Assembly: GCF_028752835.1 (NCBI RefSeq)
Contig: NZ_CP087952.1
Coordinates: 372,001-436,000, forward strand
Direction: 5' to 3'
Source: Desulfosarcina sp. BuS5
Lineage (GTDB): Bacteria > Desulfobacterota > Desulfobacteria > Desulfobacterales > BuS5
DNA: 64,000 nucleotides
This document shows positions 21,265-63,085 of the stretch, one piece after another. Under the pieces are notes generated by a model. The model did no database searches. It worked only from the letters and a program-made list of their open reading frames with translations, and was not told the origin of the DNA. Numbering within the stretch: position 1 is the stretch's first letter; the number at the start of each line of letters is the position of its first letter. The position numbers were made by a program, and so were the translations under genes.

Positions 21265-22488
21265 CGGTAGTCCCTACAAAACAATGCAGGTGATTAAAAA
21301 GTGTCTCTGAAAACATGAATAAAAAAGATTTTTACTAAAAATTAAAATTGCTATAGACTAAAAGCAATATATTTTGTAGAGTACGGTTAAAACTCTATTC
21401 AAAGGATCGCAACCATGCAAAATACAGCAAATACAGCCCTAACACTTTTTTGTCCCGGGAAAAGCTGCAAATGTTATCAATCAACCGAGAACAAAATCAC
21501 CAAGGATGGAGTTTACATAACAAAATCCGATTTTGAGCCAAGACAAATGTTTTACTGCAATGGTGGCAAACATAGATTCTCAGAAACAGGATATTCCGAT
21601 CTTTTTGGAAAGCATGGCAGTTTTAAAGAATATGAGCAAACGGCAAAGCTAAACTCTTACGGCCTTGGCACTGATGCAATTGCCGATGTACTTCAAAAAG
21701 ATCGAAGGACAATTGAACAACGGCAAAAAGCTATTGGACAAAAAGGCCAGCAATTTCACCTATTTCTTTGTTTTACTATCGGACTTACCATTGTATTTCT
21801 CCAGATGGATGAACTATGGTCTTACCTTAAAAATAAAAGTCAACAATTATGGGTTTTTATCGCTCTTGAATCAACAACAAAATTCTGGATCGGTTTCGAG
21901 TTGGGTTCAAGAACAACTTACACTGCAAACCGTTTAGTAAAGGGCGTTAAAAAGTTGGGCAAATGGGGAAAAGATAATATATTAAAGGTCGCTGCAGATA
22001 AATTAGCGGCTTACAAAAATACGCTCGAAAACATTATGTCTGAAATTCCTTATGCTTACCTGCAAATTGTTAAGCGCCGAATAAAGCGTCGGCTTGTAAC
22101 AGTTAAAAAATATTTTGTAAAAGGTACTGTAAAAGATTTCCCCGGAAAAAGCCAAAACACCTCATTTATTAAGAGACTGAACCTTACCCTGAGGCAACAT
22201 ATCTCCTATCTTCAGAGAAAAACTCTGGGGTATTGCAAGAACAAGTTGAATTTTAGTAATGTAATGTGGATCAACTTATTCAACTATAATTACATACAAT
22301 TTCATAAGAGCTTACGAATACGAATTAACAATGAAAACGAGAAATTTATAAAAAAGTATAACCATAATACACCGGCAATGCAGATGGGACTTACGAATTC
22401 TCCACTAAACTGGAGATATCTCATTACAGTCCCAATACCTTGTAAGTAGCTGATTTTTCGAACCTGCATTGTTTTGTAGGGACTACCG
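21265..22488 (+). mobile_element. IS1-family insertion sequence with perfect ends
   Basis: A 1224-bp element with perfect 26-bp terminal inverted repeats at 21265-21290 and 22463-22488 (outer tip CGGTAGTCCCTACAAAAC). It carries a single uninterrupted transposase gene. Its right flank is an IS5-type transposase fragment. No target duplication was found, suggesting later rearrangement of one flank. Confidence 0.9.
21415..22449 (+). CDS. IS1-family transposase (single ORF, ISMhu11-like)
   Basis: A 344-aa DDE transposase. The N-terminal zinc-finger-like region has CPGKSCKCYQ and YCNGGKHRFSETG; an HTH follows (GLGTDAIADVLQKDRRTIEQ). Catalytic residues are probably in LQMDELWSYL and the C-terminal blocks RQHISYLQRKTLGYCKNK and YNYIQFHKSLRI, ending TPAMQMGLTNSPLNWRYL. 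Unlike classical IS1, no frameshift is needed: one long frame as in the ISMhu11 group. It appears intact, with the whole IS. Confidence 0.85.
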   Translation: MQNTANTALTLFCPGKSCKCYQSTENKITKDGVYITKSDFEPRQMFYCNGGKHRFSETGYSDLFGKHGSFKEYEQTAKLNSYGLGTDAIADVLQKDRRTIEQRQKAIGQKGQQFHLFLCFTIGLTIVFLQMDELWSYLKNKSQQLWVFIALESTTKFWIGFELGSRTTYTANRLVKGVKKLGKWGKDNILKVAADKLAAYKNTLENIMSEIPYAYLQIVKRRIKRRLVTVKKYFVKGTVKDFPGKSQNTSFIKRLNLTLRQHISYLQRKTLGYCKNKLNFSNVMWINLFNYNYIQFHKSLRIRINNENEKFIKKYNHNTPAMQMGLTNSPLNWRYLITVPIPCK

Positions 22489-50791: not shown

Positions 50792-52231
50792 TTACCAATA
50801 TTTTTTATCGTAATCGCGATAAAGCCGCTTTAAGTGCCAACCAAATTTAATACCTTTCCAAATAAATTTGTACAAATCCCTGAATGGCACTTTAACTTTG
50901 TTTATCCTTGAAGGTACATATGCGGCGCCCATTGCATACAGAATTGCAAAATAGCGATAAAAACGTCTTAACGGTAGTTTCGTCGGAAGGATCGTATGCA
51001 GACAGTCATAATAGAGACAGGGGTCTTCACAGATGAAATTGTCCTGAGAATCATGGAAGTCATTTGTTCCGGGTGGTGGTGAAAAAATTGTAAATGCGAA
51101 TTCCGCAGGAGCCATTTCCTTTATCGTTTTCTGAACAGTGATAAAGTCTTCTTCTTCAAAATCGGGATTGATCATAAGCGCTGCATGAATGTTAAGATTC
51201 AAATCTCTAAGTATCTCTCTTGCCTCTCTGTTTTGTGAAGGTGTGGCATTTTTATTGTAGGCATTTAGAGTTTCCTCTTTAAGCGATTCAAAGCCGATAT
51301 AAACGAACTCAAGTCCGGCTTTTTTCCAGAGTTTAAAAAGTTCGGGATGATTACATATGGTATCACTTCTTGCCCACGATAGATATTTTTTCTTTATCCC
51401 CCTTGCGATAAGCATTTCCGCTATTTTAGACATTCTTTTTGTGTTAATAAAAGTCTCGTCATCAACAAAATAAATATATTCCTGAGGCAAAGACTCGATT
51501 TCGTCGACGACATCCTCGACTTTTCTCTGCAAATACTTGCCGCTTGCCAGAAAGTGCACGACACAAAAACTGCAGCGATTTGGACATCCCACGCTGGTTC
51601 TGACACAGGCAATTTCCGGGAAGAGCGTTTTTGTTTTCCTGCCCGGTTCTCCATAGCAAAGACAATAATATTTAGATACATCTATCAAATCACGACGAGG
51701 TTTCGTGTTTATGCCATCCGGATGAAGTGCGGGTGGTGGTTTTTTGGCAAGTTCATCGAAATTTTCCGAAGCAGGCTGCAGAATCCACTGAGATTCGGGC
51801 AGCTTTTCTCCCCTTTCCATAGCCGCAATGATTACCTTGATTGCGGAAACTCCATCTCCACGTACAACCAAATCAAAAAGCTCAGGATACTTGCAGTCAA
51901 GAGGAATACTTGATGAATGTATTCCCCCGATACAGACTACTGCTTCCGGCAGAATTTTTTTGGCAATTGCCGCAAGTTCTTTATTAGTACGAAACTGACC
52001 GGAAAAACCTCCAAAACCTATAAAATCAGGCTGATATTCCTGAAGTGCCTTTTTAAATGCAGCAACAGGCTTTTTATGTACCGCCAGATCGCAAATTTTC
52101 ACATCATGAGGCTCCTGCACCGCACCGGCAATCAACTCCTGAGCGTAGGGCTCAAGGAGCAGCATTGTCTGCAGCCATTTGGACGTCGGCATATAAGGAT
52201 ATGGTCTGACTAATAAAATTTTAAGATTCAT
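50792..52231 (-). CDS. B12-binding-type radical SAM protein
   Basis: A 479-aa protein. The N-terminal cobalamin-binding-like domain (about residues 1-150; ICDLAVHKKPVAAFKKAL, DFIGFGGFSGQ, VVCIGGIHSSSIPLD) lacks the DxHxxG motif of cofactor-coordinating domains, as many radical SAM relatives do. The cluster motif is TSVGCPNRCSFCVVHFLASG at about residue 212. The C-terminal part (about 410-479) is basic and possibly membrane-associated. Related proteins act on lipids, hopanoids, tetrapyrroles or phosphonates; the substrate is unknown. It stands alone, flanked by repeats and a transposase remnant. Confidence 0.85.
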   Translation of the reverse strand: MNLKILLVRPYPYMPTSKWLQTMLLLEPYAQELIAGAVQEPHDVKICDLAVHKKPVAAFKKALQEYQPDFIGFGGFSGQFRTNKELAAIAKKILPEAVVCIGGIHSSSIPLDCKYPELFDLVVRGDGVSAIKVIIAAMERGEKLPESQWILQPASENFDELAKKPPPALHPDGINTKPRRDLIDVSKYYCLCYGEPGRKTKTLFPEIACVRTSVGCPNRCSFCVVHFLASGKYLQRKVEDVVDEIESLPQEYIYFVDDETFINTKRMSKIAEMLIARGIKKKYLSWARSDTICNHPELFKLWKKAGLEFVYIGFESLKEETLNAYNKNATPSQNREAREILRDLNLNIHAALMINPDFEEEDFITVQKTIKEMAPAEFAFTIFSPPPGTNDFHDSQDNFICEDPCLYYDCLHTILPTKLPLRRFYRYFAILYAMGAAYVPSRINKVKVPFRDLYKFIWKGIKFGWHLKRLYRDYDKKYW

Positions 52232-52309: not shown

Positions 52310-53155
52310 TTAAGCAGCCAGCGGCAAGTCTTTGATCGTGTTGTTATCAAACATATTTCTCTCTATTCCCAATCCGTTACGACAGGCATTTTTCAGCTTA
52401 CCTGTCAGGACTAATGAACGTAGTAAGATTACATTCTCAGCATTTTCCCGCTTCCGAAACAGTCCCGTTCCCTTGATGCGGAGATTGATGACCCGGCGAA
52501 TGACACTTTCGACAGTACCGCTGCCGGTGGGCAAGTCGTTATCACGGAATGTTTTATATTGAAATTTAGAATGATCACCAAAATAGTCATTCAATTTCTT
52601 CAAGGCAGCCTTTGGAGCGTTTCTTTTTTTGGGCAATTTTTCCCTAATAAGATCGACAATCCCTTTTATATCGCCATTCCATAGCAGTTCTCGAACCTGT
52701 GTGGAGAGCTTTTGCTTTTCCCTCTCTGTTAATTTCAAGGCATCAGATATAATCTTTTTTACAATGTTGATATTCTGTTTTGCGTGTGTATAGTCCAAAA
52801 TCCGCTTTGCGTTACTCAGATCCAGTTCGCTGATAAGCGTATCAATTCTTGGCCAAATACCTTTTCCGCCATCAGCGCAAAAAATAATTTCCGAGGCCTC
52901 CTCGAGGTTTATCCATGAGAGGTATTCCTTGAGCAGTTCAAAAAAATTATCCAAACTATCGCATGATCCATCAAGAATGGGGCTGATCGATTTGATTTTT
53001 TTGCCATTTTCGTCAAACTAAAGTGGACCCATCGGCAACCTGAACAGTCAGTTTTTCGCCAATGTTTATCTCAATACCCTGGATCAATTTGTTAAGCATA
53101 CCCTTAAATGCCGGTATTATCTGCACCAACATTGCATGAAACAAAAATCGCTGAA
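52310..53155 (-). pseudogene. ISKra4-like transposase remnant
   Basis: The intact frame (52310-52954) contains IIFCADGGKGIWPRIDTLIS, LDYTHAKQNINIVKKI and SGTVESVIRRVINLRIKGTG, the DDE-type C-terminal half of ISKra4-related transposases. Upstream, after a frameshift near 53018, about 45 codons of the preceding part continue ([29 protein letters not shown]). The N-terminus and IS ends are missing. The ATG of the last part (MDNFFELLKEYL) is internal. Confidence 0.75.
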
Positions 53156-53238
53156 TTGAGCTGCGCCGAGTAAGAATCAGAAACGATCAATACCGAAAGA
53201 TATAAGTTAAAAGCAATAACTTACAAAACCGCGGGATA

Positions 53239-53547
53239 TTAGGTGTCAGGCTCAAATGATTTGTTCGGCCTTGGTTTTTCTATAAGATAGCCGGAAACAT
53301 AACGGTACAAAACGCTATACATAAGTGTTTGATATGGAATCCCTTTTTCTACAGCAAGAGCTTGGATTTCCTCCAGAATTTTTGACGACATTCTGATATT
53401 AACTCTTTTATCCTTTTTTAAGGTTTTGTGTGCATACTGCTGATGCTTCACTATTTCTTCTTTAACATTTTGCACCGACTTCCACTCACCTCGCTCAAAG
53501 GATTCGAGAATCTCTTGTTCGTCTTTATCGAGTTTAATTTTATCCAT
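53239..53547 (-). CDS. CopG/BrnA-like antitoxin
   Basis: A 102-aa protein with the ribbon-helix-helix-like segment DKRVNIRMSSKILEEIQALA and EKGIPYQTLMYSVLYRYVSG, which is typical of antitoxins that pair with BrnT/RelE-fold toxins. It overlaps the upstream toxin gene by 8 bp and would repress the pair and neutralise the toxin. It has an acidic N-terminus (LDKDEQEILESFERGEW). Confidence 0.85.
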   Translation of the reverse strand: MDKIKLDKDEQEILESFERGEWKSVQNVKEEIVKHQQYAHKTLKKDKRVNIRMSSKILEEIQALAVEKGIPYQTLMYSVLYRYVSGYLIEKPRPNKSFEPDT

Positions 53548-53821
53548 TCTTGCCTCCTAAATAAACACGAGTGGCTTTACGACTTGGAATTATTGTTTTT
53601 AGAAACTTACCATTTTCATTTTCCACAAATGGAACAAGATAAGCATAATCATTAATTTCAACCAAAAGTAATTGTTGGTTAGGATATTTTTCTTGATTGG
53701 GATGAGCTACAATATCAAGCACATCACCTCGCTCAATATGCATGGTTATTTGCTCAAAACTCACACCACGTTCTATTTTAAGCTGTTCATTTTTTTCTTT
53801 ATTCCATCTATAATAGTCCAT
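53540..53821 (-). CDS. BrnT-like toxin
   Basis: A 93-aa protein beginning MDYYRWNKEKNEQLKIERGV, with SFEQITMHIERGDVLDIV, ENENGKFLKTIIPSRKATRV. The order of strands and the late SRKATR block resemble BrnT toxins (RelE-like fold, RNA cleavage blocking translation). The toxin precedes the antitoxin, the order of brnTA. The family match is by pattern only; it might be a distant RelE/DUF4258-type protein. Confidence 0.75.
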   Translation of the reverse strand: MDYYRWNKEKNEQLKIERGVSFEQITMHIERGDVLDIVAHPNQEKYPNQQLLLVEINDYAYLVPFVENENGKFLKTIIPSRKATRVYLGGKNG

Positions 53822-54217: not shown

Positions 54218-54294
54218 CGGGACGTGGCTCAGCCTGGTAGAGCACAGCGTTCGGGACGCTGGGGTCGCTGGTTCAAATCCAGTCGTCCCGACCA
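54218..54294 (+). tRNA. tRNA-Pro(CGG)
   Basis: A 77-nt cloverleaf: acceptor stem CGGGACG / CGTCCCG, D-arm with GCTCAGCCTGGTAGAGC, anticodon stem CAGCG / CGCTG around TTCGGGA (anticodon CGG), T-arm with CTGGTTCAAATCCAG, and an encoded CCA. It resembles standard bacterial tRNA-Pro throughout. Confidence 0.97.
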
Positions 54295-54466: not shown

Positions 54467-55216
54467 ATGACAAATTCTATAACGCTTCTCCTGTTAAACA
54501 CTCAATTTTACATATTATTCCTCTTGTGTACCTTTATCTGCATTCCGTTTTTTGTCATAATAGTTGCAATACAGGCCTTGTTTTTATCCCACCGCAGCAC
54601 AATGGAACGGTTCCGCCGGGCGATAAAATGGTACGGAATCATTGTAATCAAAGTGTTGCCATTCCCGTTTGTACGCATAATATACGAAGATCTTGATCAG
54701 GATAAAAGTATTGTTCCGTGTATTTATATTTGTAATCACAGGTCAACCTCGGACCCTTTTCTAATGTCCCTGCTTCCGTTTGAATTGGTGCAGGTGGTTA
54801 ACAAGTGGCCGTTTCGTATACCGATTTTGGGAATATTTGCTAAATGGTCCGGGTACCTGAGCGTTAACGAGATGGCCTTTGAAGAATTCTCATCCAGGGT
54901 TTCAACGCTCTTGGATCAGGGGGTTTCCATTGCTGCCTTTCCTGAAGGTACCAGGTCCGGCGGTAAAAATATGGGCCAGTTTCACGGGGCCATGTTCCGC
55001 ATAGCCCTTCAAACCAGATGCCCTATAGTTCCTGTTTGCATTACAGGGAACGAAATGATACCATTAAAAGGCTCCCTTTTGCTAAGGCCGGGCAGAATCC
55101 GTATTCGTAAGCTAAAAGCTTTAAAATGGGAAGATTACAAAGATTTAACACCTTTTAAATTTAAAAATCTCGTCCGGAATATTCTTGCCGGAGAGATGAT
55201 CAGTGTAGAGAAATAA
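54467..55216 (+). CDS. 1-acyl-glycerol-3-phosphate-type acyltransferase (PlsC family)
   Basis: A 249-aa membrane acyltransferase. An N-terminal hydrophobic segment (FYILFLLCTFICIPFFVII) is followed by motif I NHRSTSDPFL (HxxxxD), motif II-like RIPILGIFAKWSGY, motif III FPEGTRSGG and motif IV CPIVPVCITGNE. It would transfer an acyl chain to a lysophospholipid-like or specialised acceptor. It is the first gene of the cassette running to 61908 and overlaps the ligase gene by one base (TAATG). PlsC-like genes are regular members of aryl-polyene-type clusters. Confidence 0.9.
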   Translation: MTNSITLLLLNTQFYILFLLCTFICIPFFVIIVAIQALFLSHRSTMERFRRAIKWYGIIVIKVLPFPFVRIIYEDLDQDKSIVPCIYICNHRSTSDPFLMSLLPFELVQVVNKWPFRIPILGIFAKWSGYLSVNEMAFEEFSSRVSTLLDQGVSIAAFPEGTRSGGKNMGQFHGAMFRIALQTRCPIVPVCITGNEMIPLKGSLLLRPGRIRIRKLKALKWEDYKDLTPFKFKNLVRNILAGEMISVEK

Positions 55217-56508
55217 TGACTGATGAATTATTCGGATATCATGACATAGGATTCTCTTCATCTGGTGTTATAAAAAAACTGCAGGAAAAGATTTTGCGGC
55301 GGCATCTTGTTTACTGTAAAAAGCATTCTCCACATTACAGAAAAAAATTTAAAAAATTTGATTTTGACAATTTTTCCTTAAACAGGTTACATGAGCTTCC
55401 TTTTACGGTAAAATCGGATATCAGCCGGTGCAATGAAGATTTTCTGGCTGTTGCCTGTGATAAAATAGTTGATATAGTTATGACCTCCGGGACAACCGGT
55501 CTTCCTTTGAAAATGATGTACACAGGTGCGGATCTTGACCGGCTGGCGTATAATGAAGAAAAATCTTTGGCAGGGTGCGGTATAACTGATAAGGATAGAG
55601 TACTTTTAACCTGTACTCTGGACAGATGCTTTATTGCGGGACTCGCCTATTTCCTGGGGGTACGAAGCATCGGCGCAGCAGCAGTGAGAAACGGCCAGAA
55701 CAGCCTGGAGAGTCAGGTTGAAATTATCAAGCTGATGCGGCCGACTATTATTGTGGGGGTTCCGTCCTTTTTGATAAAATTAGGTATGTATATTGCAAAT
55801 ACAGGAGCTGATCCTCGAAAAACCGGGATTACCGGCCTTGTTTGCATAGGTGAACCTGTCCGGGATATGGATCTGAAACTATTAAAAACAGGAAAAGACT
55901 TAACAAATATCTGGAATGCAAATCTCTTTTCCACTTATGCTTCTACTGAAACCGTCACTACTTTTTGTGAATGTGAGCAACAAGAAGGAGGGCACCTGCA
56001 TCCTGACCTGGCGATTGCAGAGATAGTAGATGAACTCGGCAATCCGGTGCCATCCGGCACAGCCGGAGAGGTTGTTATTACGCCACTCTCGGTGGAGGGG
56101 ATGCCGCTGGTTCGTTATAAAACAGGTGACATCAGTTTTTTGATAGATGAGCCGTGCCAATGCGGCCGATTTACGCCCCGACTGGGTCCGATTCTCGGCC
56201 GAAAAAAACAGATGATTAAATTAAAGGGGACCACCCTTTATCCTCAATCAATCTATTCAGCTCTGAACGAAATTGATGAAATAGAAGATTATTATATAGT
56301 AGTTACCTCTAAAAATTTACTTTCGGATGAGGTTGTAATTCATACAGCGGTAAATGATAAAATTTATACCGCGCAAAAAATAGCAACAAAACTTCGGGCA
56401 AAGCTGCGTGTAAAACCTGATATAGTTATTACCGATAAAAAAAATGTTGAAAAGCATATCAACCGCCCTGGATCAAGGAAACACATCCGTTTTATTGACA
56501 GGAGATAA
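55216..56508 (+). CDS. PaaK-like AMP-forming ligase
   Basis: A 430-aa adenylate-forming enzyme of the phenylacetate-CoA ligase family: VMTSGTTGLPLKMMY (P-loop), YASTETVTTFCECEQQEG, LVRYKTGDIS, and GRKKQMIKLKGTTLYPQSIY. A CxC...C metal-like group (PCQCGRF) is typical of PaaK relatives. It would activate an aromatic or other carboxylic acid as an adenylate or CoA thioester. In this cassette it may supply a starter or a tailoring acyl group; the substrate is unknown. It starts on the last base of the acyltransferase stop. Confidence 0.88.
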   Translation: MTDELFGYHDIGFSSSGVIKKLQEKILRRHLVYCKKHSPHYRKKFKKFDFDNFSLNRLHELPFTVKSDISRCNEDFLAVACDKIVDIVMTSGTTGLPLKMMYTGADLDRLAYNEEKSLAGCGITDKDRVLLTCTLDRCFIAGLAYFLGVRSIGAAAVRNGQNSLESQVEIIKLMRPTIIVGVPSFLIKLGMYIANTGADPRKTGITGLVCIGEPVRDMDLKLLKTGKDLTNIWNANLFSTYASTETVTTFCECEQQEGGHLHPDLAIAEIVDELGNPVPSGTAGEVVITPLSVEGMPLVRYKTGDISFLIDEPCQCGRFTPRLGPILGRKKQMIKLKGTTLYPQSIYSALNEIDEIEDYYIVVTSKNLLSDEVVIHTAVNDKIYTAQKIATKLRAKLRVKPDIVITDKKNVEKHINRPGSRKHIRFIDRR

Positions 56509-56517
56509 GAATATTCA

Positions 56518-57987
56518 ATGAGTTGTTCCAGCCAGATCCACAATTTTGAATTCAAAATGGAGGATATTGAAAAAGCCGTCAAAAGCGGCCGGCTCCTCTC
56601 TATGGAAATAGAAGTGACTCTTAAATGCAATTTTCGATGTCCTTATTGTTATGTGCCGGACAAGGCAGCCCCTGAAAACGAATTATCACTGGATGAGATC
56701 AAGGACGTTATTCTGCAGGCCAGGGGTTTGGGCGCCGAAAAAATTATTCTGCTGGGCGGAGAGCCCGCGATTCATCCGAATATTCTGACAATTATCCGGT
56801 TTATCAGGGATCATGCTCTGGAGGTTGAGATGTTTACCAACGGATCGATGATTACTGAAGGTTTTGCGAAAGAATTATACAAAAACCGGGTCAGGGTTGT
56901 ATTAAAAATGAATACCTTTGATGAAAAGCTTCAGGATTTGCTAACCGGCAAAAATGGTTCATTTAAGGTTATCCATAAAGCCTTAAGCAATCTCCGTCAG
57001 GCCGGATATCCATCAGAACAGACCTTCCTGGCTGTCAGTACAATCATCTGCCGGCAAAATCTCGATGAAATCCCGGAACTTTGGCGCTGGCTGCGGGATC
57101 GTGATATTGCCCCCTACTTTGAGATCATAACACCCCAGGAAAATGCTCTGACAAATGAGTGGCTGAATGTCCGCCCTGAAAAATTAAAAGATGTATTTTA
57201 CCTGGTTTCGGAAATAGACCGGAAAGAGTATGGATATGTCTGGGACCCGCAACCGCCCCTGATGGGAAACAGATGTATGCGGCATCAATTTTCCTGCCTT
57301 GTTACTTCCAGGGGCGATGTTATGCCCTGTGTCGGGATTAACATTCCGGTGGGCAGCATCAGAAAAAAAAGACTGGCCGATATCATCAAAGATAGTGAAG
57401 TACTGCAAAACCTGAAAAATTATAAACAAACAATCAAGGGTCCGTGCGGCGCATGCGAAAAGGCCGACACATGCTACGGATGTCGGGGAGCTGCCTTTCA
57501 AATGACCGGGGATTATCTTGCATCCGACCCTCTCTGCTGGAAAAATATAGATAAGAGAGATGAGATTGTGAGTCTGCCATGCCCGATTAATGGTCTTATT
57601 CCGCAAAAACCACCCATGAGGGTGGTCGATAATATCCTCATGATTGGAGAACGTACTGCCGAGGTTTCCGTAACAATCGCAGAGGATATGCCCTTTATCG
57701 GACAGGATGGAGTTATCGATGAAACTGTCTACCTGGAAATGATGGCCCAGAGTATAGCAGCGTTTAACGGTTTCATGCATGCCGGTATGACTTCTTGCTC
57801 CCATGAAGGTCTTCTGCTCGGTGCTAAAAAGCTGACAATCTCAGGACAATCAAAAGTTGGAGACAGGCTGAACATTTCAATATTCAAACAGGCGCGCTAT
57901 GGTGATTTCGGCATCATAAAAGGTATTATTACCCGGGAAGATGAAGTGATTGCCGACGGTGAGATAAAAATCTGGCAAAAAATCTGA
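56518..57987 (+). CDS. radical SAM/SPASM protein fused to an ApeP-like hotdog (dehydratase-type) domain
   Basis: A 489-aa two-part protein. Residues about 25-240 are a radical SAM domain with LKCNFRCPYCYVPDKA (CxxxCxxC) and LLGGEPAIHPN; a SPASM-like region (about 245-345) has extra cysteines (MRHQFSCLVTSRGDVMPCVG, GPCGACEKADTCYGCRG). From about residue 358 a hotdog fold begins (NGLIPQKPPMRVVDNILMIG, then VYLEMMAQSIAAFNGFMHAG, LLLGAKKLTIS), matching the 3-hydroxyacyl-ACP dehydratase-like ApeP/COG4706 type. Linking a SPASM enzyme to a fatty-acid-type dehydratase domain is unusual. It sits between the ligase (9 bp) and the LolA gene (19 bp). Confidence 0.85.
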   Translation: MSCSSQIHNFEFKMEDIEKAVKSGRLLSMEIEVTLKCNFRCPYCYVPDKAAPENELSLDEIKDVILQARGLGAEKIILLGGEPAIHPNILTIIRFIRDHALEVEMFTNGSMITEGFAKELYKNRVRVVLKMNTFDEKLQDLLTGKNGSFKVIHKALSNLRQAGYPSEQTFLAVSTIICRQNLDEIPELWRWLRDRDIAPYFEIITPQENALTNEWLNVRPEKLKDVFYLVSEIDRKEYGYVWDPQPPLMGNRCMRHQFSCLVTSRGDVMPCVGINIPVGSIRKKRLADIIKDSEVLQNLKNYKQTIKGPCGACEKADTCYGCRGAAFQMTGDYLASDPLCWKNIDKRDEIVSLPCPINGLIPQKPPMRVVDNILMIGERTAEVSVTIAEDMPFIGQDGVIDETVYLEMMAQSIAAFNGFMHAGMTSCSHEGLLLGAKKLTISGQSKVGDRLNISIFKQARYGDFGIIKGIITREDEVIADGEIKIWQKI

Positions 57988-58006
57988 CTCTACGTGGTTT
58001 TTGTTA

Positions 58007-58675
58007 ATGAAAAAAAAAGCATACCTTCTTATAATATTCTATCTTGTAGTTTTTGCCGGTTACGGCGCCTGTTTTGCTAAAGAGCCTGAAAATGTCTGTG
58101 ATGAAATCGGCGGGGTGCTGACAAGGCTTGAGCATAATATGTCGGAGATCAATAGTATCTCATCCGGCTTTGTCCAGGAAAAGGATCTGGCCCTGTTTAA
58201 AAACAGGCTTGTCATTAAAGGATTTGTTTACTTAAAAAAACCGGATCTTTTAGCCTGGTATGTTACTGAACCGCTAAGATACAAGGTAGTCATTAAAGGT
58301 GATACTATTGCTCAGTGGGATGAAGAAACAAACAAAACCCAAAAAATTTCTATTAAAAAAAATTCTGCCTTGCAAACAGTCTTTGAACAGATGAATAAAT
58401 GGTTTTCAGGTACATACGGTTCCATGACCAATGAATACCGGATCATGCTTCTCAGCCGGGCGCCGGTATCGCTCCGCTTTATTCCCAAAAATGGAACTTA
58501 TGCCTATAACGCCATCAGCAGCGTCACGGTAACCTTCCGGGATGATGAACGTTATATTAAAAAAATAGAAATCAACGAAAAAACAGGCGACCGCACAAAA
58601 CTGACATTTGTCAATACATTTTTAAACGAAACTATCGACGATGCCGCGTGGGAGGTTAAACCACGTGCTAAGTAA
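58007..58675 (+). CDS. LolA-like outer-membrane lipoprotein carrier
   Basis: A 222-aa periplasmic protein. Signal peptide MKKKAYLLIIFYLVVFAG, then a LolA-fold domain (SSGFVQEKDLALFKNRLVIK, GFVYLKKPDLLAWYVTEPL, YKVVIKGDTIAQWDEETNK). The ATG at 58007 is preferred to a TTG six bases before. Specialised LolA proteins accompany aryl-polyene-type clusters and are thought to carry a lipid product or lipoprotein across the periplasm. Its end overlaps the MMPL gene by 11 bp. Confidence 0.88.
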   Translation: MKKKAYLLIIFYLVVFAGYGACFAKEPENVCDEIGGVLTRLEHNMSEINSISSGFVQEKDLALFKNRLVIKGFVYLKKPDLLAWYVTEPLRYKVVIKGDTIAQWDEETNKTQKISIKKNSALQTVFEQMNKWFSGTYGSMTNEYRIMLLSRAPVSLRFIPKNGTYAYNAISSVTVTFRDDERYIKKIEINEKTGDRTKLTFVNTFLNETIDDAAWEVKPRAK

Positions 58676-61067
58676 GCTTTTTGGCGGTATTTTCGACTCA
58701 GCGGCAACTCATAAAAAATTGGTGGGAATAATCGCCCTGCTGCTGACCATAGCCTCCGCCGCCGGCCTTGTTTATATTCGGTTTGACAACAACGTGGAAC
58801 TGATGCTGCCCGCGAATGACGAAATCTGCAAAAGCATGCGTTTTCTGCGGGAATCGGATATCTCCGACAAGGTCATCATCTCTTTTCAGCTGAAGTCATC
58901 ACAATTTACAACGATTGATCTTATTGCAGCAGTCGACACGTTTTGCGCTTCATTAAATACGCCTCTTGTAACAGATGTGGTAACCGGTATTGCAGAATAC
59001 AATATAATGGGTGACATGCTTGATTTTTTAAAGTATGTCCCGCAGCTTACAAATCAACAAGCCCTCAATAAAATTGACCGGCAAATTTCTCCACAGGGCG
59101 TAAAAACGGCGCTTTTCAACAACTACCGCAGTCTTCTCGGCCCGGCCGGATCTTTTATGTCTGAATTTATCAGCTCCGACCCCCTCGGTATAAACTACAA
59201 ATACCTGCATTCGCTGGAAAAACTGACAAATTCATTCGGTTATAAGATAAACATCAAAAACGGCCATTTTATCAGTTCCGACGGGACCCATGCCATGGTT
59301 ATTTTAAAAACACCGGTTGTATTAACCGACGGTTTTGGATCAAAAAAACTCATAAACTATATCAAGACCCGTCTGAATGACCTTCCCGATTATGTTACGG
59401 CGGATATAATTGCCGGACATATGCATACCATCAGCAATGAGACTGTAATTAAAAAAGACATCTTTTTAACGCTTTCGATCTCCACCATTGTATTCTTATT
59501 ATTATTTTTCTTTTTTTTCAGCGACATAAAAGCTGTTCTCCTTTTTGTTATCCCATTGGTCTCCGTTCTCGCGGCGATCAATATTACCTGTCTGATCCTG
59601 GATAAGCTTTCATACTTTATTATCGGAATGGGCGGCGTGATTGCCGGTATTGCCGTTGATTATGGAATCCACGTTTATATGGCGGTTCGCACGGGAGACG
59701 GCCGGCCTGATTCGGTAAAAAAGGTCTTTAAACCGATAGTAACAGGCGCTCTGACCACCATGGGTGTTTTTGCGGCTTTCTTTTTTTCTGATGTTGCAGG
59801 ATACAGGCAACTCGCCCTGTTTTCGATTATAAGCATCCTGATATGTCTTTTATATGCTCTTTTCCTGTTGCCACACTTCCTTGGAAAAAAATCCTGCAAG
59901 TCCCAAAAAACAAGTTTAAATAAAAATCGATTTTTTAAAAAACCGGTTGCAGACCCGCTGATTGTCTGCTTCTGGGCCGGGTTTATGATATTTTTATTGA
60001 TTTCATGCCGGGGGTTAATTTTTTCCAATGACATAAAGCAATTCGACGGAAGCGCGGCGGAAGTGCTCCAGGCAGAGCAGAATTTTCATCAGGTGTGGGG
60101 CGGTGCGCGGCAGCCGGCTGTTTTTGTTGTTTCCGGCCAAACTATTGAGGCCGCTCTTGAAAAAAACGAACGTATTTATAAAATCGCCACGGAAAAAATC
60201 GGGCAAAATAATTTCACCAGTTTTGCTTCCATTTGGCAGTCTGCCAAAACAAGGCAAGAAAACCTTTTGCGATGGAACAGATTCTGGAAGGAAAACCGTG
60301 CCTCAAAACTCAAAAAACTGATTGCCCGATATGGTGAACCATATAATTTCAGGGAAGATGCTTTTTTAAATTTTTTTGATAATATTACGGCAGGTACGAT
60401 TATAAAAAACATTCCGGATCGACCGGAATTTTTTTCCGTTTTAAAAGATAGATTTGTTAAAAATAAAAAAGACGGGTTTGAAATCCTCTCTTTTTTCCCG
60501 GATGAGGAAAAATATGTCAGGCTCCTTTCAGAAGTGTGTGATGAATTCCCGGACACCTTTATTGTCTCCCGCAATCAGTTTGCAAATATTATTTCCCGGT
60601 CGATTGCCTCGGAAATTATTTATCTCGCAATTATTGCCGGTGTTATGATACCCCTGCTGGCAGTTCTACTCTTAAGGAATATCAAACTTGCGCTGCTATC
60701 GCTGATACCGGTATTAAGCAGCATTATGACAATCTGCGGAGCGCTGCCGTTAATAAAAATGCCGATGAATGCGCCCTCTGTAATCGCCGGCATGGTTGTG
60801 GTGGGTCTCTCAATTGATTACGGTATTTTCATGGTCTATACCTGTTATCATAAATTAAGAACCGGCACTTATACTGCTGTTACGCTTTCAGCGGTAACAA
60901 CGTTGATAGGCGCCGGAGTACTTGTGTTTGCAAAACATCCAATGCTCTTTTCAATCGGTATTACCCTGGTTACCGGTATCCTGGCCGGATTTACGGCCTC
61001 TATCCTTGTGATTCCGGCCATGTTCAGGCTATGGACAACAAAAAAGGAGCCCTCATTCTCATGTTAA
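58665..61067 (+). CDS. MMPL/RND-family lipid exporter
   Basis: About 800 aa with two halves of six membrane segments. GTG 58665 with GGAGG 9 bases upstream is the better start; an ATG at 58641 lies inside lolA. First half IIGMGGVIAGIAVDYGIHVY; second half VIAGMVVVGLSIDYGIFMVY, both carrying the MMPL proton-relay Asp-Tyr. Periplasmic loops at about 40-240 and 440-620. MMPL proteins export lipids; with LolA and the DUF3261-like lipoprotein it forms a plausible route from inner to outer membrane. Confidence 0.9.
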   Translation: MLSKLFGGIFDSAATHKKLVGIIALLLTIASAAGLVYIRFDNNVELMLPANDEICKSMRFLRESDISDKVIISFQLKSSQFTTIDLIAAVDTFCASLNTPLVTDVVTGIAEYNIMGDMLDFLKYVPQLTNQQALNKIDRQISPQGVKTALFNNYRSLLGPAGSFMSEFISSDPLGINYKYLHSLEKLTNSFGYKINIKNGHFISSDGTHAMVILKTPVVLTDGFGSKKLINYIKTRLNDLPDYVTADIIAGHMHTISNETVIKKDIFLTLSISTIVFLLLFFFFFSDIKAVLLFVIPLVSVLAAINITCLILDKLSYFIIGMGGVIAGIAVDYGIHVYMAVRTGDGRPDSVKKVFKPIVTGALTTMGVFAAFFFSDVAGYRQLALFSIISILICLLYALFLLPHFLGKKSCKSQKTSLNKNRFFKKPVADPLIVCFWAGFMIFLLISCRGLIFSNDIKQFDGSAAEVLQAEQNFHQVWGGARQPAVFVVSGQTIEAALEKNERIYKIATEKIGQNNFTSFASIWQSAKTRQENLLRWNRFWKENRASKLKKLIARYGEPYNFREDAFLNFFDNITAGTIIKNIPDRPEFFSVLKDRFVKNKKDGFEILSFFPDEEKYVRLLSEVCDEFPDTFIVSRNQFANIISRSIASEIIYLAIIAGVMIPLLAVLLLRNIKLALLSLIPVLSSIMTICGALPLIKMPMNAPSVIAGMVVVGLSIDYGIFMVYTCYHKLRTGTYTAVTLSAVTTLIGAGVLVFAKHPMLFSIGITLVTGILAGFTASILVIPAMFRLWTTKKEPSFSC

Positions 61068-61069
61068 GG

Positions 61070-61251
61070 ACTCGCTCAAAAATAAATTTACAGAATTGGC
61101 GCTCAGATTTAGGTTGGATTTGGACGCTCATATTGAGCAAAGCCGCAGGAATAGCGAGCTATTTCGAGGACTTTGCGGAATGAGGAGCGTGCAAAGGCAG
61201 CCTGAATATGAGATGCCAAAATGTGAAGTTATTTTTGAGCGAGTCCTCAGG
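61070..61251. repeat. MITE-like element with GGACTCGCTCAAAAATAA ends inserted at the lipoprotein start
   Basis: Terminal inverted repeats AGGACTCGCTCAAAAATAA (61067-61085) and TTATTTTTGAGCGAGTCCT (61230-61248) bound about 180 bp. The left end is identical over 25 bases with 41983-42007. The flanks ATGTTAAGG and CAGGTTGATATTG suggest that a lipoprotein start ATG TTA AGG TTG ATA was split by the insertion. Confidence 0.75.
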
Positions 61252-61908
61252 TTGATATTGATTGCAGGCTTAATACTGCTATTGAGCGGATGCGCAAATA
61301 AAATACCATTTAAAAAAGCAGTCCTTGTTCCTGTGGAAGCTGTTGATCCGGAATCGGTTCGGGACAGCTTTGAGGCATCGCTCCCGCAAAGTTTTCAATT
61401 GATCAGTTCCACAGTTTTTAAATATAAAATGCATTCGTTTGCGGCCATCGGCGTGACCGGGATTGATACCCGGAAAAAAGAATTCACCCTGGCCTGTATT
61501 AACCCGATGGGTGTCAAACTGTTTGAACTGGCAGGCGATGAACAGGGTGTTGACTGCAGATTTGCAATGAAAGAATTTACACAAAAAGGTGATTTTGCCA
61601 AAATGGTGGCAAATGATATCAGGAGCATATATTTTGATCGGATTCCGGATAAAAATGCCGAAGTTGTTAAAAAAAATAAAAAAATTATTTTTTTTCAACC
61701 TGTCAACGGCGGGACAATGGAATATCTGTTTGGGGGTACAGGGAACCTGTTGATAGAGAAAAGATTTATAAAAAAGGGGCGTAAAATCTGGTCTGTTTTT
61801 TACTTTGAATATATCTCAAAAAAGGGTAAACTGCATCCCGCGGGAATTATTTTAAAGAATTATATTTATCGATATAAACTGGTTATACGTGCAAAAGGAA
61901 ATCAATAA
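61096..61908 (+). CDS. DUF3261-like outer-membrane lipoprotein with MITE-altered N-terminus
   Basis: The open frame of 270 codons begins at ATG 61096 inside the MITE-like element; residues 1-52 (MALRFRLDLDAHIEQSRRNS...) are encoded by the repeat. A proper lipoprotein signal follows (LRLILIAGLILLLSG then Cys at about residue 66), so the native protein probably started at ATG 61061 before the insertion or now starts at TTG 61252. The mature part has SLPQSFQLISSTVFKYKMHS and VTGIDTRKKEFTLACINPMG, which resembles DUF3261 lipoproteins of aryl-polyene clusters. The stop overlaps the convergent ATPase gene by 26 bp. The starting point and present function are uncertain. Confidence 0.72.
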   Translation: MALRFRLDLDAHIEQSRRNSELFRGLCGMRSVQRQPEYEMPKCEVIFERVLRLILIAGLILLLSGCANKIPFKKAVLVPVEAVDPESVRDSFEASLPQSFQLISSTVFKYKMHSFAAIGVTGIDTRKKEFTLACINPMGVKLFELAGDEQGVDCRFAMKEFTQKGDFAKMVANDIRSIYFDRIPDKNAEVVKKNKKIIFFQPVNGGTMEYLFGGTGNLLIEKRFIKKGRKIWSVFYFEYISKKGKLHPAGIILKNYIYRYKLVIRAKGNQ

Positions 61909-63085
61909 AATTTATTCTCCGGATCCCAGCGAAATCATTACCAAAAACCTTATCCATGCTTATCACATATTTAGGATAATTATCCTTAATTCGCTTAAGA
62001 ACTGAAAATTCTCTTTCAATGGTTTCTGGTGATGCCAGTAAATAGGCAACCTGAATATATAGTTTTTTATTTTTTTTTTCAGCAATAAAATCGATCTCTT
62101 TGTTACCATATTTTCCAATATGGATATTAAATCCTCTTCTTTTAAGTTCAAGGAAGACAAGATTTTCAAGCATTCCCGAAATATCGGTCTCTTTATATCC
62201 CAGCATGGCATGCCTCAGGCTTAAATCACCGAGGTAATATTTTTCATGTAGTTCCAGCAGGCGTTTCCCTTTTATGTCATAACGGGATGTTTTATGTATC
62301 GCAAATGTAGACAAAAGATACGAAATATAATTCTGAACAGTTTCTATCCCCACTTTCATTTTTTGCGATTTGATAAAGTCGGATATCTTTTTTGCTGAGA
62401 AAATATTACCCACATTATCAAAAACATACTGGGTAATTTTTTCAAGAAGATATACGTTCCGAATACTGTTTCTTTTGATAACATCTTTTAAAAGTATGGT
62501 GCTGTATAATGAATTAATATATTGATAAATAACTTCTTCATGAAAATTAAAATGATGAATAGCAGGAAAACCTCCAAATTTCAGATACTTTAAAAATTCA
62601 GTTTCAATATCTTCTTTTTTATCATTTCTGAATAAAAGGAATTCTTCAAAGCTCAACGTATAAACAGGAAACTCGATAAATCGTCCGGAGATAAGTGTTG
62701 CTATTTCAGAAGAGAGAAGATGAGCATTTGAACCTGTAACATAGATATCGATATTACCTTGTGAAAACAATGAGGTTATTGCTTTTTCCCATTCAGCTAT
62801 TTCCTGTATTTCATCTACAAAAAGATATTTTTTCCCTTTAATACCTTTGAAACACTTGATTACATACTGGTTAAGATCTCTGTAATCGGAAATAAATTCA
62901 AAATCAAGAGACTCTTTATTGATATAAAGGATGGCATTTTTATGCTCTGGATTTTGTTTAAGCATTTCAATAATCAGTTTTATCAAACAGCTTTTTCCAA
63001 CCCGTCTCATTCCTGTAATAATTTTAATAACAGGCTTATCAATAAATGGTCTAATTTTATCTATATATAAGTTTCTTCCGTACAT
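61883..63085 (-). CDS. AAA_14/DUF4143 ATPase
   Basis: A 400-aa protein. Walker A TGMRRVGKSCLIKLIIEML, Walker B YLFVDEIQEIAEWEKAI, sensor VTGSNAHLLSSEIATLISGR and the C-terminal DUF4143 nuclease-like domain (GMLENLVFLELKRRGFNIHI, GNKEIDFIAEKKNKKLYIQV). The family is common in archaea and bacteria, often in variable regions, with no proven role. It converges with the cassette end and is not obviously part of it. Confidence 0.92.
   Translation of the reverse strand: MYGRNLYIDKIRPFIDKPVIKIITGMRRVGKSCLIKLIIEMLKQNPEHKNAILYINKESLDFEFISDYRDLNQYVIKCFKGIKGKKYLFVDEIQEIAEWEKAITSLFSQGNIDIYVTGSNAHLLSSEIATLISGRFIEFPVYTLSFEEFLLFRNDKKEDIETEFLKYLKFGGFPAIHHFNFHEEVIYQYINSLYSTILLKDVIKRNSIRNVYLLEKITQYVFDNVGNIFSAKKISDFIKSQKMKVGIETVQNYISYLLSTFAIHKTSRYDIKGKRLLELHEKYYLGDLSLRHAMLGYKETDISGMLENLVFLELKRRGFNIHIGKYGNKEIDFIAEKKNKKLYIQVAYLLASPETIEREFSVLKRIKDNYPKYVISMDKVFGNDFAGIRRINFIDFLLHV

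What the first reader, a model, noticed from the sequence alone, without database searches (positions are those of the whole stretch)
54467..61908. Six-gene lipid/pigment cassette with a radical SAM-hotdog fusion and a LolA-MMPL-DUF3261 export module
Seen: PlsC, PaaK-like ligase, a radical SAM/SPASM protein fused to an ApeP-like hotdog domain, LolA-like carrier, MMPL exporter and DUF3261-like lipoprotein, all plus strand with overlaps or gaps under 20 bp up to the lipoprotein. Known: aryl-polyene clusters carry specialised PlsC, AMP ligase, LolA, MMPL and DUF3261 genes for an outer-membrane lipid, but also ketosynthases and ACPs. Inference: this is a related but distinct system in which a SPASM enzyme modifies an activated aryl or acyl intermediate and the hotdog domain acts on the same substrate. 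The absence of ketosynthase and ACP genes within the cassette is the unusual part.
Basis: partly seen in the sequence, partly recalled or inferred. Interest (0 to 1): 0.82.

Follow-up and report, generated by a model that had tools for sequence, protein, structure and literature searches.

The report
Broken aryl-polyene-type lipid gene cluster
The six genes are the middle of a larger conserved gene cluster that probably builds and exports a pigment-like outer-membrane lipid; its oddity is one half of an enzyme fused to a radical enzyme, which in some relatives has decayed while its iron-sulfur part was kept.

Summary
The six genes are real and correctly named. The stated oddity, no ketosynthase or ACP, is largely an artefact of the window edge and an insertion. 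In relatives the six genes sit inside a 16-gene type-II polyketide cluster: SDR, CrtI-like oxidase, KS1, ACP, PlsC, FlxY, rSAM-hotdog, LolA, MMPL, DUF3261, ApeI-like, thioesterase, KS2, KS fragment, two B12-radical-SAM genes. In this genome the cluster resumes 4.4 kb past DUF3261, beyond the window, with ApeI-like, thioesterase and KS2 before the readable sequence ends. Close relatives of the upstream genes (SDR, oxidase, KS1, ACP) were not found in readable sequence.

The hotdog is the ApeP half of a split ApeI:ApeP dehydratase: it keeps the Glu and lacks the His; the ApeI-like protein does the reverse (27 of 27 examined). Three relatives have both halves in one protein.

The fusion occurs in 36 distinct loci, by record titles mainly Desulfobacterota and Omnitrophota. 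Its radical-SAM domain is intact in 22, all with FlxY beside it, and degenerate in 14, none with FlxY in the operon; 11 of those 14 keep all eight SPASM cysteines. Only 2-3 independent changes underlie this. Best reading: a new variant of aryl-polyene/flexirubin-type clusters. The radical chemistry is unknown.

The parts
54467..55216 (+). PlsC-like lysophospholipid acyltransferase (like apeD)
   Evidence: PF01553 3.6e-20; conserved in order in relatives
55216..56508 (+). FlxY-type PaaK-like acyl/aryl-CoA ligase
   Evidence: NF053551 FlxY 5.2e-145, 483 bits against cut-off 520; PaaK structure 1.5e-46
56518..57552 (+). radical SAM/SPASM domain: CxxxCxxC (C37, C41, C44) and eight SPASM cysteines intact
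   Evidence: PF04055 3.5e-25, PF13186 2.8e-7; cysteines; fold Z 25.6 to SuiB over model residues 11-342
57553..57987 (+). ApeP-like hotdog half-dehydratase (Glu407 kept, His position is Phe393)
   Evidence: 6qsr_B 1.8e-19, Z 20.0; residue counts
58001..58675 (+). LolA-like periplasmic carrier (like apeL)
   Evidence: PF03548 2.2e-13; LolA2_flexi 4.2e-30, below cut-off
58641..61067 (+). MMPL/RND inner-membrane exporter (like apeM)
   Evidence: PF03176 3.1e-6; HpnN model 8.8e-25, below cut-off
61213..61908 (+). DUF3261 LolB-like lipoprotein (like apeN); ORF opens at 61096, likely start at 61213
   Evidence: PF11659 2.9e-4, just below cut-off; lipobox LLLSGC
50792..52231 (-). B12-binding radical SAM protein, possibly a displaced accessory gene of the same kind of cluster
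   Evidence: 68% identity over 477 aa to a gene inside the G274 cluster (L105); no close match in the other loci compared there
52310..53821 (-). ORF that I read as a transposase fragment, and a CopG/BrnT-type toxin-antitoxin pair, on the side where KS1-ACP lie in relatives
   Evidence: PF12441 2.1e-8; PF04365 2.8e-6 (below cut-off); the 214-aa ORF has no Pfam match
54218..54294 (+). tRNA-Pro (CGG) directly upstream of the cassette
   Evidence: ARAGORN; no exact second copy of its last 18-28 bases in the window plus the next 4 kb
61883..63085 (-). AAA_14/DUF4143 ATPase; first gene of the stretch that separates the cassette from ApeI-like, thioesterase and KS2
   Evidence: PF13173 4e-32, PF13635 2e-16; cluster resumes at C1:438282, which would be window position 66282

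Best explanation
The cassette is the tailoring/export middle of an aryl-polyene/flexirubin-type lipid cluster that has been broken in this genome. FlxY makes a CoA (or acyl) starter from a carboxylic acid. KS1 and KS2 with an ACP elongate it, an SDR reduces the keto groups, and the hotdog half of the rSAM-hotdog protein together with the separate ApeI-like protein forms one composite dehydratase site (Glu from the first, His from the second). No enoyl reductase was noticed in the cluster, so the chain would stay unsaturated. PlsC puts the acid on a lipid anchor, and MMPL, LolA and the LolB-like DUF3261 protein carry it to the outer membrane. The radical SAM domain probably acts on the FlxY-derived starter or an early ACP-bound intermediate and is held at the elongation site by the fusion. 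Shown by computation: gene content, order, homology, the reciprocal active-site residues, the co-occurrence with FlxY. Inferred: the biochemistry, the product, the rSAM reaction, and whether the pathway still works in this genome.
For: Fuller clusters with the same gene order in relatives. KS1 upstream in 21 of 23 loci with at least 6.5 kb held, KS2 downstream in 13 of 15 with at least 9 kb held. In this genome, past the window: ApeI-like gene C1:438282-438671, thioesterase C1:438652-439143 and KS2 from C1:439098, at 40%, 59% and 60% identity to relatives' proteins, with FabA, 4HBT and ketoacyl-synthase domains. ApeI-like protein matches 6qsr_A (3.8e-5, its best hit) and hotdog matches 6qsr_B, the two chains of one solved heterocomplex (title). 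Reciprocal residues: His kept and Glu absent in 27 of 27 ApeI-like proteins examined; Glu kept in 36 of 36 fusion hotdogs, with Phe at the His position in 35 and Ser in one. ApeP-like and ApeI-like hotdogs form one protein in L187, L188 and L192. FlxY of Chitinophaga pinensis ligates 4-coumarate to CoA in vitro (PMC3992019, abstract and passages). E. coli ape gene list has D acyltransferase, L LolA-like, M RND, N DUF3261 (PMC8253772, passages). Intact rSAM goes with FlxY in 22 of 22; degenerate rSAM lacks FlxY in the operon in 14 of 14.
Against: Close relatives of the cluster's KS1, oxidase, ACP, SDR and B12rSAM1 were not found in the readable genome: best KS1 match 36% (FabF at C1:1141 kb), oxidase only short FAD-motif matches, best SDR matches 43% and 40% whereas the cluster SDRs of L049 and L050 are 75% and 66% identical to that of L046, B12rSAM1 30% over part of its length. 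ACP-domain matches are the FabF-linked one, two in a multidomain synthase and two others, of which the small one at C1:10187 does not resemble the cluster ACP; the fifth, in an 891-aa frame, was not followed. So the pathway may be dead here. FlxY and LolA2 scores are below curated cut-offs. The G044 SDR scores marginally best with a general FabG model (297.0 bits, cut-off 273, passed) and FlxB is second (295.9, cut-off 340, not passed). The rSAM-FlxY link rests on 2-3 independent changes (sign test p 0.5), and FlxY was looked for only near the fusion, not across those genomes. FlxY exists without rSAM in a sister cluster (L192) and as a fragmented copy in L194. G262, with a degenerate rSAM, has a 43% FlxY homologue on the other strand 5.5 kb away. 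With a laxer limit (7.5 kb held downstream) KS2 is seen in 19 of 25 loci; G274, G262, G090 and G279 add to the misses, though a longer piece of G262 has a KS2-like gene at 36% (L155).
Confidence: 0.72

Rival explanations
1. A self-standing KS-less cassette: FlxY, SPASM and hotdog act on an imported or primary-metabolism acyl/aryl group, which PlsC then anchors and the Lol/MMPL module exports.
For: In this genome no close relatives of KS1, ACP, SDR and the CrtI-like gene are seen. In L132 the trio PlsC-FlxY-rSAM-hotdog stands alone among unrelated genes with 11 and 10 kb held on either side.
Against: KS2, the ApeI-like gene and a thioesterase follow in this genome after a 4.4-kb interruption; 21 of 23 loci with enough DNA have KS1 upstream; a toxin-antitoxin-type pair and an unrelated ATPase flank the cassette.
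Confidence: 0.12
2. A ladderane-like or polyunsaturated-hydrocarbon cluster rather than an aryl polyene: the CrtI-like oxidase and radical SAM enzymes would make a cyclised or highly unsaturated alkyl chain.
For: Rattray 2009 (PMC2649909, passages and section 9) describes FASII clusters with radical SAM, phytoene-dehydrogenase-like and phenylacetyl-CoA-ligase genes in Kuenenia and Desulfotalea, the latter with polyunsaturated hydrocarbons and no ladderanes detected. The Cariaco Basin paper (PMC9902471, section 10) reports clusters called ladderane in Desulfobacterota, Omnitrophota and other phyla with unknown function. One B12-rSAM protein of L046 scores weakly to the ladderane-type model (54.3 bits against 360).
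Against: FlxY and LolA are closest to flexirubin models; the hotdog is nearer ApeP than anammox FabZ by sequence profile (1.8e-19 against 6.1e-9). I did not compare with the Kuenenia or Desulfotalea genes themselves.
Confidence: 0.25
3. The cluster is a decaying remnant in this genome: nothing is made, and the six genes persist by chance or for another use of the export module.
For: Upstream half not found in readable sequence and an interruption in the middle; no match in the two same-genus and one same-family genomes sampled at the limits of 1e-30 and 1e-15.
Against: All six ORFs are intact; catalytic cysteines and hotdog Glu kept. The three kin genomes are 66-83% complete.
Confidence: 0.25

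Closest known systems
Aryl-polyene (ape) clusters, e.g. E. coli CFT073 and Xenorhabdus doucetiae
   Same: PlsC-like acyltransferase, LolA, RND/MMPL and DUF3261 export genes; ApeI:ApeP split dehydratase; KS, KR, ACP and thioesterase in the full form.
   Different: ApeP fused to radical SAM/SPASM; a FlxY-type ligase; CrtI-like oxidase and two B12-radical-SAM genes in the full form.
Flexirubin (flx) cluster of Chitinophaga pinensis and Flavobacterium johnsoniae
   Same: FlxY-type ligase and LolA2-type carrier (closest NCBIfam models); acyltransferase, exporter, several KS.
   Different: Scores below curated cut-offs; no FlxA-type ammonia-lyase recognised in the clusters seen here (not searched for as such in relatives); rSAM-hotdog fusion here, no radical SAM gene named in the passages of the flexirubin paper that I saw.
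Ladderane-type FASII clusters (Kuenenia, Desulfotalea; clusters called 'ladderane' in PMC9902471)
   Same: KS paralogues, radical SAM, phytoene-dehydrogenase-like and phenylacetyl-CoA-ligase genes together, also in Desulfobacterota.
   Different: Export module and ApeI:ApeP pair here; relation to the actual ladderane genes not tested.

Membership tests
Aryl-polyene cluster | KS/KS-CLF, KR, ACP and split ApeI:ApeP dehydratase | tested here: inconclusive
   ApeP, ApeI-like and KS2 present in this genome; close relatives of the cluster's KS1, KR and ACP not found in readable sequence, though present in relatives
Aryl-polyene cluster | LolA-RND-DUF3261 export genes and PlsC-like acyltransferase | tested here: met
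   (DUF3261 1.1 bits under its Pfam cut-off); gene list of the E. coli cluster in PMC8253772
Aryl-polyene cluster | aryl head group on a conjugated polyene carboxylic acid | not testable with these tools
   no metabolite data
Flexirubin FlxY ligase (NF053551) | score over the curated cut-off of 520 bits | tested here: not met
   483.4 bits: a near relative, not filed as a member
Flexirubin LolA2 (NF053544) | score over the curated cut-off of 125 bits | tested here: not met
   104.7 bits
Radical SAM/SPASM | CxxxCxxC in a radical SAM domain and SPASM cysteines | tested here: met
   window protein C37, C41, C44 and eight SPASM cysteines; both Pfam cut-offs passed; fold
ApeP-type half dehydratase | ApeP-like fold, catalytic Glu without catalytic His, partner ApeI-like protein with His without Glu | tested here: met
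   activity and complex not tested
Pfam ApeP-like PF22817 | score over gathering cut-off of 27 bits | tested here: not met
   14.5 bits
Pfam ApeI-like PF22818 (downstream 129-aa protein) | score over gathering cut-off of 28.5 bits | tested here: not met
   24.4 bits; FabA-like PF07977 passes with 25.8 against 23
Ladderane biosynthesis cluster | homology to the anammox ladderane genes; ladderane product | not tested
   anammox loci were not fetched

The most novel reading that the evidence does not exclude
A radical SAM/SPASM enzyme is built into one half of a split polyketide dehydratase so that radical chemistry happens on the ACP-bound chain at the elongation site. Where the FlxY starter ligase is lost, the radical core is dismantled, but the SPASM iron-sulfur domain stays as an essential structural or redox part of the dehydratase: a 'SPASM-hotdog' without radical SAM activity.
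Probability: 0.3. Interest if true: 0.8.

Novelty: new variant of a known kind. Interest (0 to 1): 0.6.

Why it matters
Little-studied bacteria of two main groups (by record titles Desulfobacterota and Omnitrophota) carry a conserved cluster whose product is unknown and which may be among those reported as 'ladderane' clusters. The reciprocal active-site residues and the ApeP-ApeI gene fusions give a directly testable model for the dehydratase. The stepwise loss of the radical SAM core with the auxiliary Fe-S domain mostly kept gives a natural series for asking what a SPASM domain does on its own.

Tried and rejected
KS-less system: rejected as the main reading after KS2, an ApeI-like gene and a thioesterase were found just past the window. 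A 13,878-aa open frame next to the window is an artefact of a stretch that reads N. Search for a tyrosine ammonia-lyase: one PF00221 protein in the genome; its Ser-His motif (sequence) suggests a histidine lyase by recalled motif knowledge, so no aryl starter source was found. tRNA-Pro as an integration site: no exact second copy of its 3' end in the window plus 4 kb. The 5' part of the DUF3261 ORF as a repeated element: no other copy of 33 bases in the window with up to 3 mismatches, no exact match of a second 25-base piece in the 195 loci then held. Composition gives no sign of foreign origin: cassette 42.2% G+C, window 42.2%. Stand-alone rSAM relatives (about 30 of 389 genomes by my count of the rows, about 60% identical) were looked at in 12 contexts (L047, L048, L110, L117-L125); none showed a FlxY hit in the stretch held; in the one annotated with Pfam (L124) the neighbours are ACP, a dehydratase, PlsY, a glycosyltransferase and an MMPL-methyltransferase fusion. 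Papers: seven searches were run. The four that could have met a radical SAM enzyme or these phyla in such a cluster (10, 54, 55, 69; listings with abstract starts, for only 15 of 72 papers) listed none whose title or abstract start describes this fusion; one search found no paper. Of PMC9902471 I saw passages and section 10. One row of the tree (L136) has a long branch, several rows, the window's among them, have under half of the columns, and the window's place is unsure. L145 is titled Bacteroidales but stands among Omnitrophota rows in the tree; a binning error is possible. My ORF picker hid the ApeI-like and thioesterase genes of G044 under a longer overlapping frame; tblastn shows them, so G044 is not among the 27 ApeI-like proteins examined.
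Full report
OBSERVATION. The ligase is closest to FlxY, the flexirubin acyl-CoA ligase (483.4 bits, cut-off 520), and the LolA to LolA2_flexi (104.7, cut-off 125), both just under the curated cut-offs; the rSAM part is closest to AhbD but far below its cut-off (142.3 of 500). The lipoprotein probably starts at 61213.

THE HOTDOG. It misses the Pfam ApeP cut-off, but a profile of six relatives finds the ApeP chain 6qsr_B at 1.8e-19, ahead of anammox and other FabZ chains at 6.1e-9 or worse. An AlphaFold2 model of the whole protein (31 sequences, mean pLDDT 86.9, pTM 0.86) matches SPASM peptide maturases and PqqE over roughly its first 345 residues and 6qsr_B, 'The Dehydratase Heterocomplex ApeI:P', over residues 352-489 (Z 20.0, rmsd 2.1, 137 aligned). 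FabZ proteins score nearly the same Z (within 1), so the fold alone does not separate ApeP from FabZ; the sequence profile does.

THE CLUSTER IN RELATIVES. In G044 (L046) the six genes lie between SDR, two CrtI-like oxidases, KS1 and ACP on one side and ApeI-like, thioesterase, KS2, a KS fragment and two B12-radical-SAM genes on the other. The same order recurs across the loci fetched, where the contigs reach far enough. Of 36 distinct fusion loci, 23 have at least 6.5 kb held upstream and 21 of these have KS1 there; the exceptions are this genome and L132. Fifteen have at least 9 kb held downstream and 13 have KS2; the exceptions are G192 and L132. With the limit at 7.5 kb it is 19 of 25, the further misses being G274, G262, G090 and G279; a longer piece of G262 has a KS2-like gene at 36% (L155).

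THIS GENOME. After DUF3261 come an AAA_14 ATPase and a gene with HTH and weak peptidase domains, with smaller ORFs between; then the cluster resumes with an ApeI-like protein (C1:438282-438671), a 4HBT thioesterase (C1:438652-439143) and KS2 (from C1:439098), 40%, 59% and 60% identical to relatives' proteins (domains). The readable sequence ends inside KS2. Upstream of PlsC are a tRNA-Pro and a CopG/BrnT-type pair. Whole-genome searches with the relatives' genes gave only distant matches: KS1 36% to a FabF, the oxidase only short FAD-motif pieces, the SDR 43% and 40%, B12rSAM1 30% in part. Between clusters the SDR of L046 is 75% and 66% identical to those of L049 and L050. ACP-domain matches (five) are one beside FabF, two inside a 2143-aa frame, one in an 891-aa frame (not followed), and a small ORF at C1:10187 that does not resemble the cluster ACP. 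CrtIb, the KS fragment and B12rSAM2 were sought only in the window, L043, L045, L035, L053 and L054. So 'no ketosynthase' is wrong for the genome, while 'no cluster ACP' is unresolved.

DISTRIBUTION. A profile search of 389 genomes of the class gave 91 with a match at 1e-30 or better, which by coverage include AhbD-like and stand-alone rSAM proteins. Twenty-two of the 389 carry the hotdog fusion; a hotdog-profile search of 389 genomes of the order, 54 with a match at 1e-15, brought up the same 22 and no further rSAM-hotdog fusion among the ORFs inspected. One more genome, G249, is cut by the contig end after FlxY and the start of rSAM. Of the 14 new, ten are titled Omnitrophota or Omnitrophica, one Candidatus Aceula, one Bacteroidales, one Pseudomonadota and one 'bacterium'. 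Total 36 distinct loci. The two same-genus and one same-family genomes sampled have no match at the limits of those searches.

SPLIT ACTIVE SITE. Thirty loci were examined and 27 ApeI-like proteins found; in all 27 the FabZ-type His (GHF) is kept and the residue 14 further on, where FabZ has Glu, is Q, M, L, K or H (the FabZ residue roles are recalled). In 36 of 36 fusion hotdogs the Glu is kept; the residue 14 before it is Phe in 35 and Ser in one, never His. The published statement that ApeI/ApeP dehydratases are heterodimers with a single active site is in PMC8041823 (passages seen). In G311, G084 and G004 an ApeP-like and an ApeI-like hotdog form one protein, which supports the pairing; of these only G004 (L192) shows it inside a full cluster with KS1, KS2 and FlxY. 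The ApeI-like protein of this genome hits 6qsr_A at 3.8e-5 but misses the Pfam ApeI cut-off.

DECAY OF THE RADICAL CORE. In 22 of 36 loci the protein has CxxxCxxC and a full barrel; all 22 have FlxY, three of them as pieces cut by contig ends, next to it on the same strand. In 14 of 36 the rSAM part is degenerate: 12 lack most of residues 110-245, three of these 12 keep CxxxCxxC, and two (G038, G303) keep most of the barrel length but not the motif. None of the 14 has FlxY in the operon; G262 has a 43% homologue on the other strand. FlxY was not searched across those genomes. Eleven of the 14 keep all eight SPASM cysteines; G178 lacks one, G038 three and G303 four. On a tree of PlsC, hotdog and KS1 (38 rows) each trait needs three changes; two independent pairs on well-supported branches, three on the best tree, go the same way; sign test p 0.5. 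This is a pattern, not a statistical proof. FlxY also occurs without any rSAM in the sister cluster L192.

MECHANISM. FlxY of C. pinensis ligates 4-coumarate to CoA in vitro (PMC3992019, abstract and passages), so a CoA-activated aryl or acyl starter is plausible here. KS, KR and the split dehydratase without an enoyl reductase would give a polyene; this step is inferred. The acyltransferase and LolA-MMPL-DUF3261 genes match apeD and apeL-M-N of E. coli by annotation (PMC8253772, passages), where anchoring and export are themselves proposals. The rSAM reaction is unknown; its co-occurrence with FlxY points to the starter or an early intermediate.

OTHER READING. Rattray 2009 (PMC2649909, passages and section 9) reported FASII clusters with radical SAM, phytoene-dehydrogenase-like and phenylacetyl-CoA-ligase genes in Kuenenia and Desulfotalea. 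PMC9902471 (passages and section 10) reports clusters called ladderane in Desulfobacterota, Omnitrophota and others, outside anammox bacteria with unknown function. I did not test homology with those loci, so kinship is possible. The SDR of G044 scores slightly better with a general FabG model than with FlxB, so the flexirubin kinship rests on FlxY and LolA.

NOVELTY. A new variant of the aryl-polyene/flexirubin kind. My literature searches listed no paper whose title or abstract start describes the fusion, in an open-access library that lacks most subscription journals.

Noticed in passing
window 50792-52231 (-): B12-binding radical SAM protein, 68% identical over 477 aa to a gene inside the G274 cluster (L105), so perhaps a displaced member of this kind of cluster.
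   Followed up: partly
L124 9657-16305 (G241) and similar contexts L048, L121, L123: A stand-alone relative of the rSAM domain (about 60% identical) beside a large MMPL protein; in L124 the MMPL is fused to a methyltransferase and lies with ACP, PlsY, glycosyltransferase and dehydratase genes: a second lipid cluster type with the same SPASM family.
   Followed up: partly
L187 8867-9757, L188 7904-8791, L192 8028-8918: Single proteins made of an ApeP-like and an ApeI-like hotdog.
   Followed up: yes
L050 3555-5300: KS2 and the KS fragment are one 581-aa protein in G038, which suggests that the two work together where separate.
   Followed up: no
L132 7942-11470: PlsC-FlxY-rSAM-hotdog trio alone among unrelated genes.
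   Followed up: no
own genome C1:1919922 and C1:3161915: Two large multidomain synthases of over 2000 aa with KS domains; the first also has two ACP-type matches.
   Followed up: no
window 21415-22449 (+): ORF with a near-identical piece (99% over 101 aa) beside the PF00221 lyase elsewhere in the genome; probably a transposase of a multicopy insertion element.
   Followed up: no
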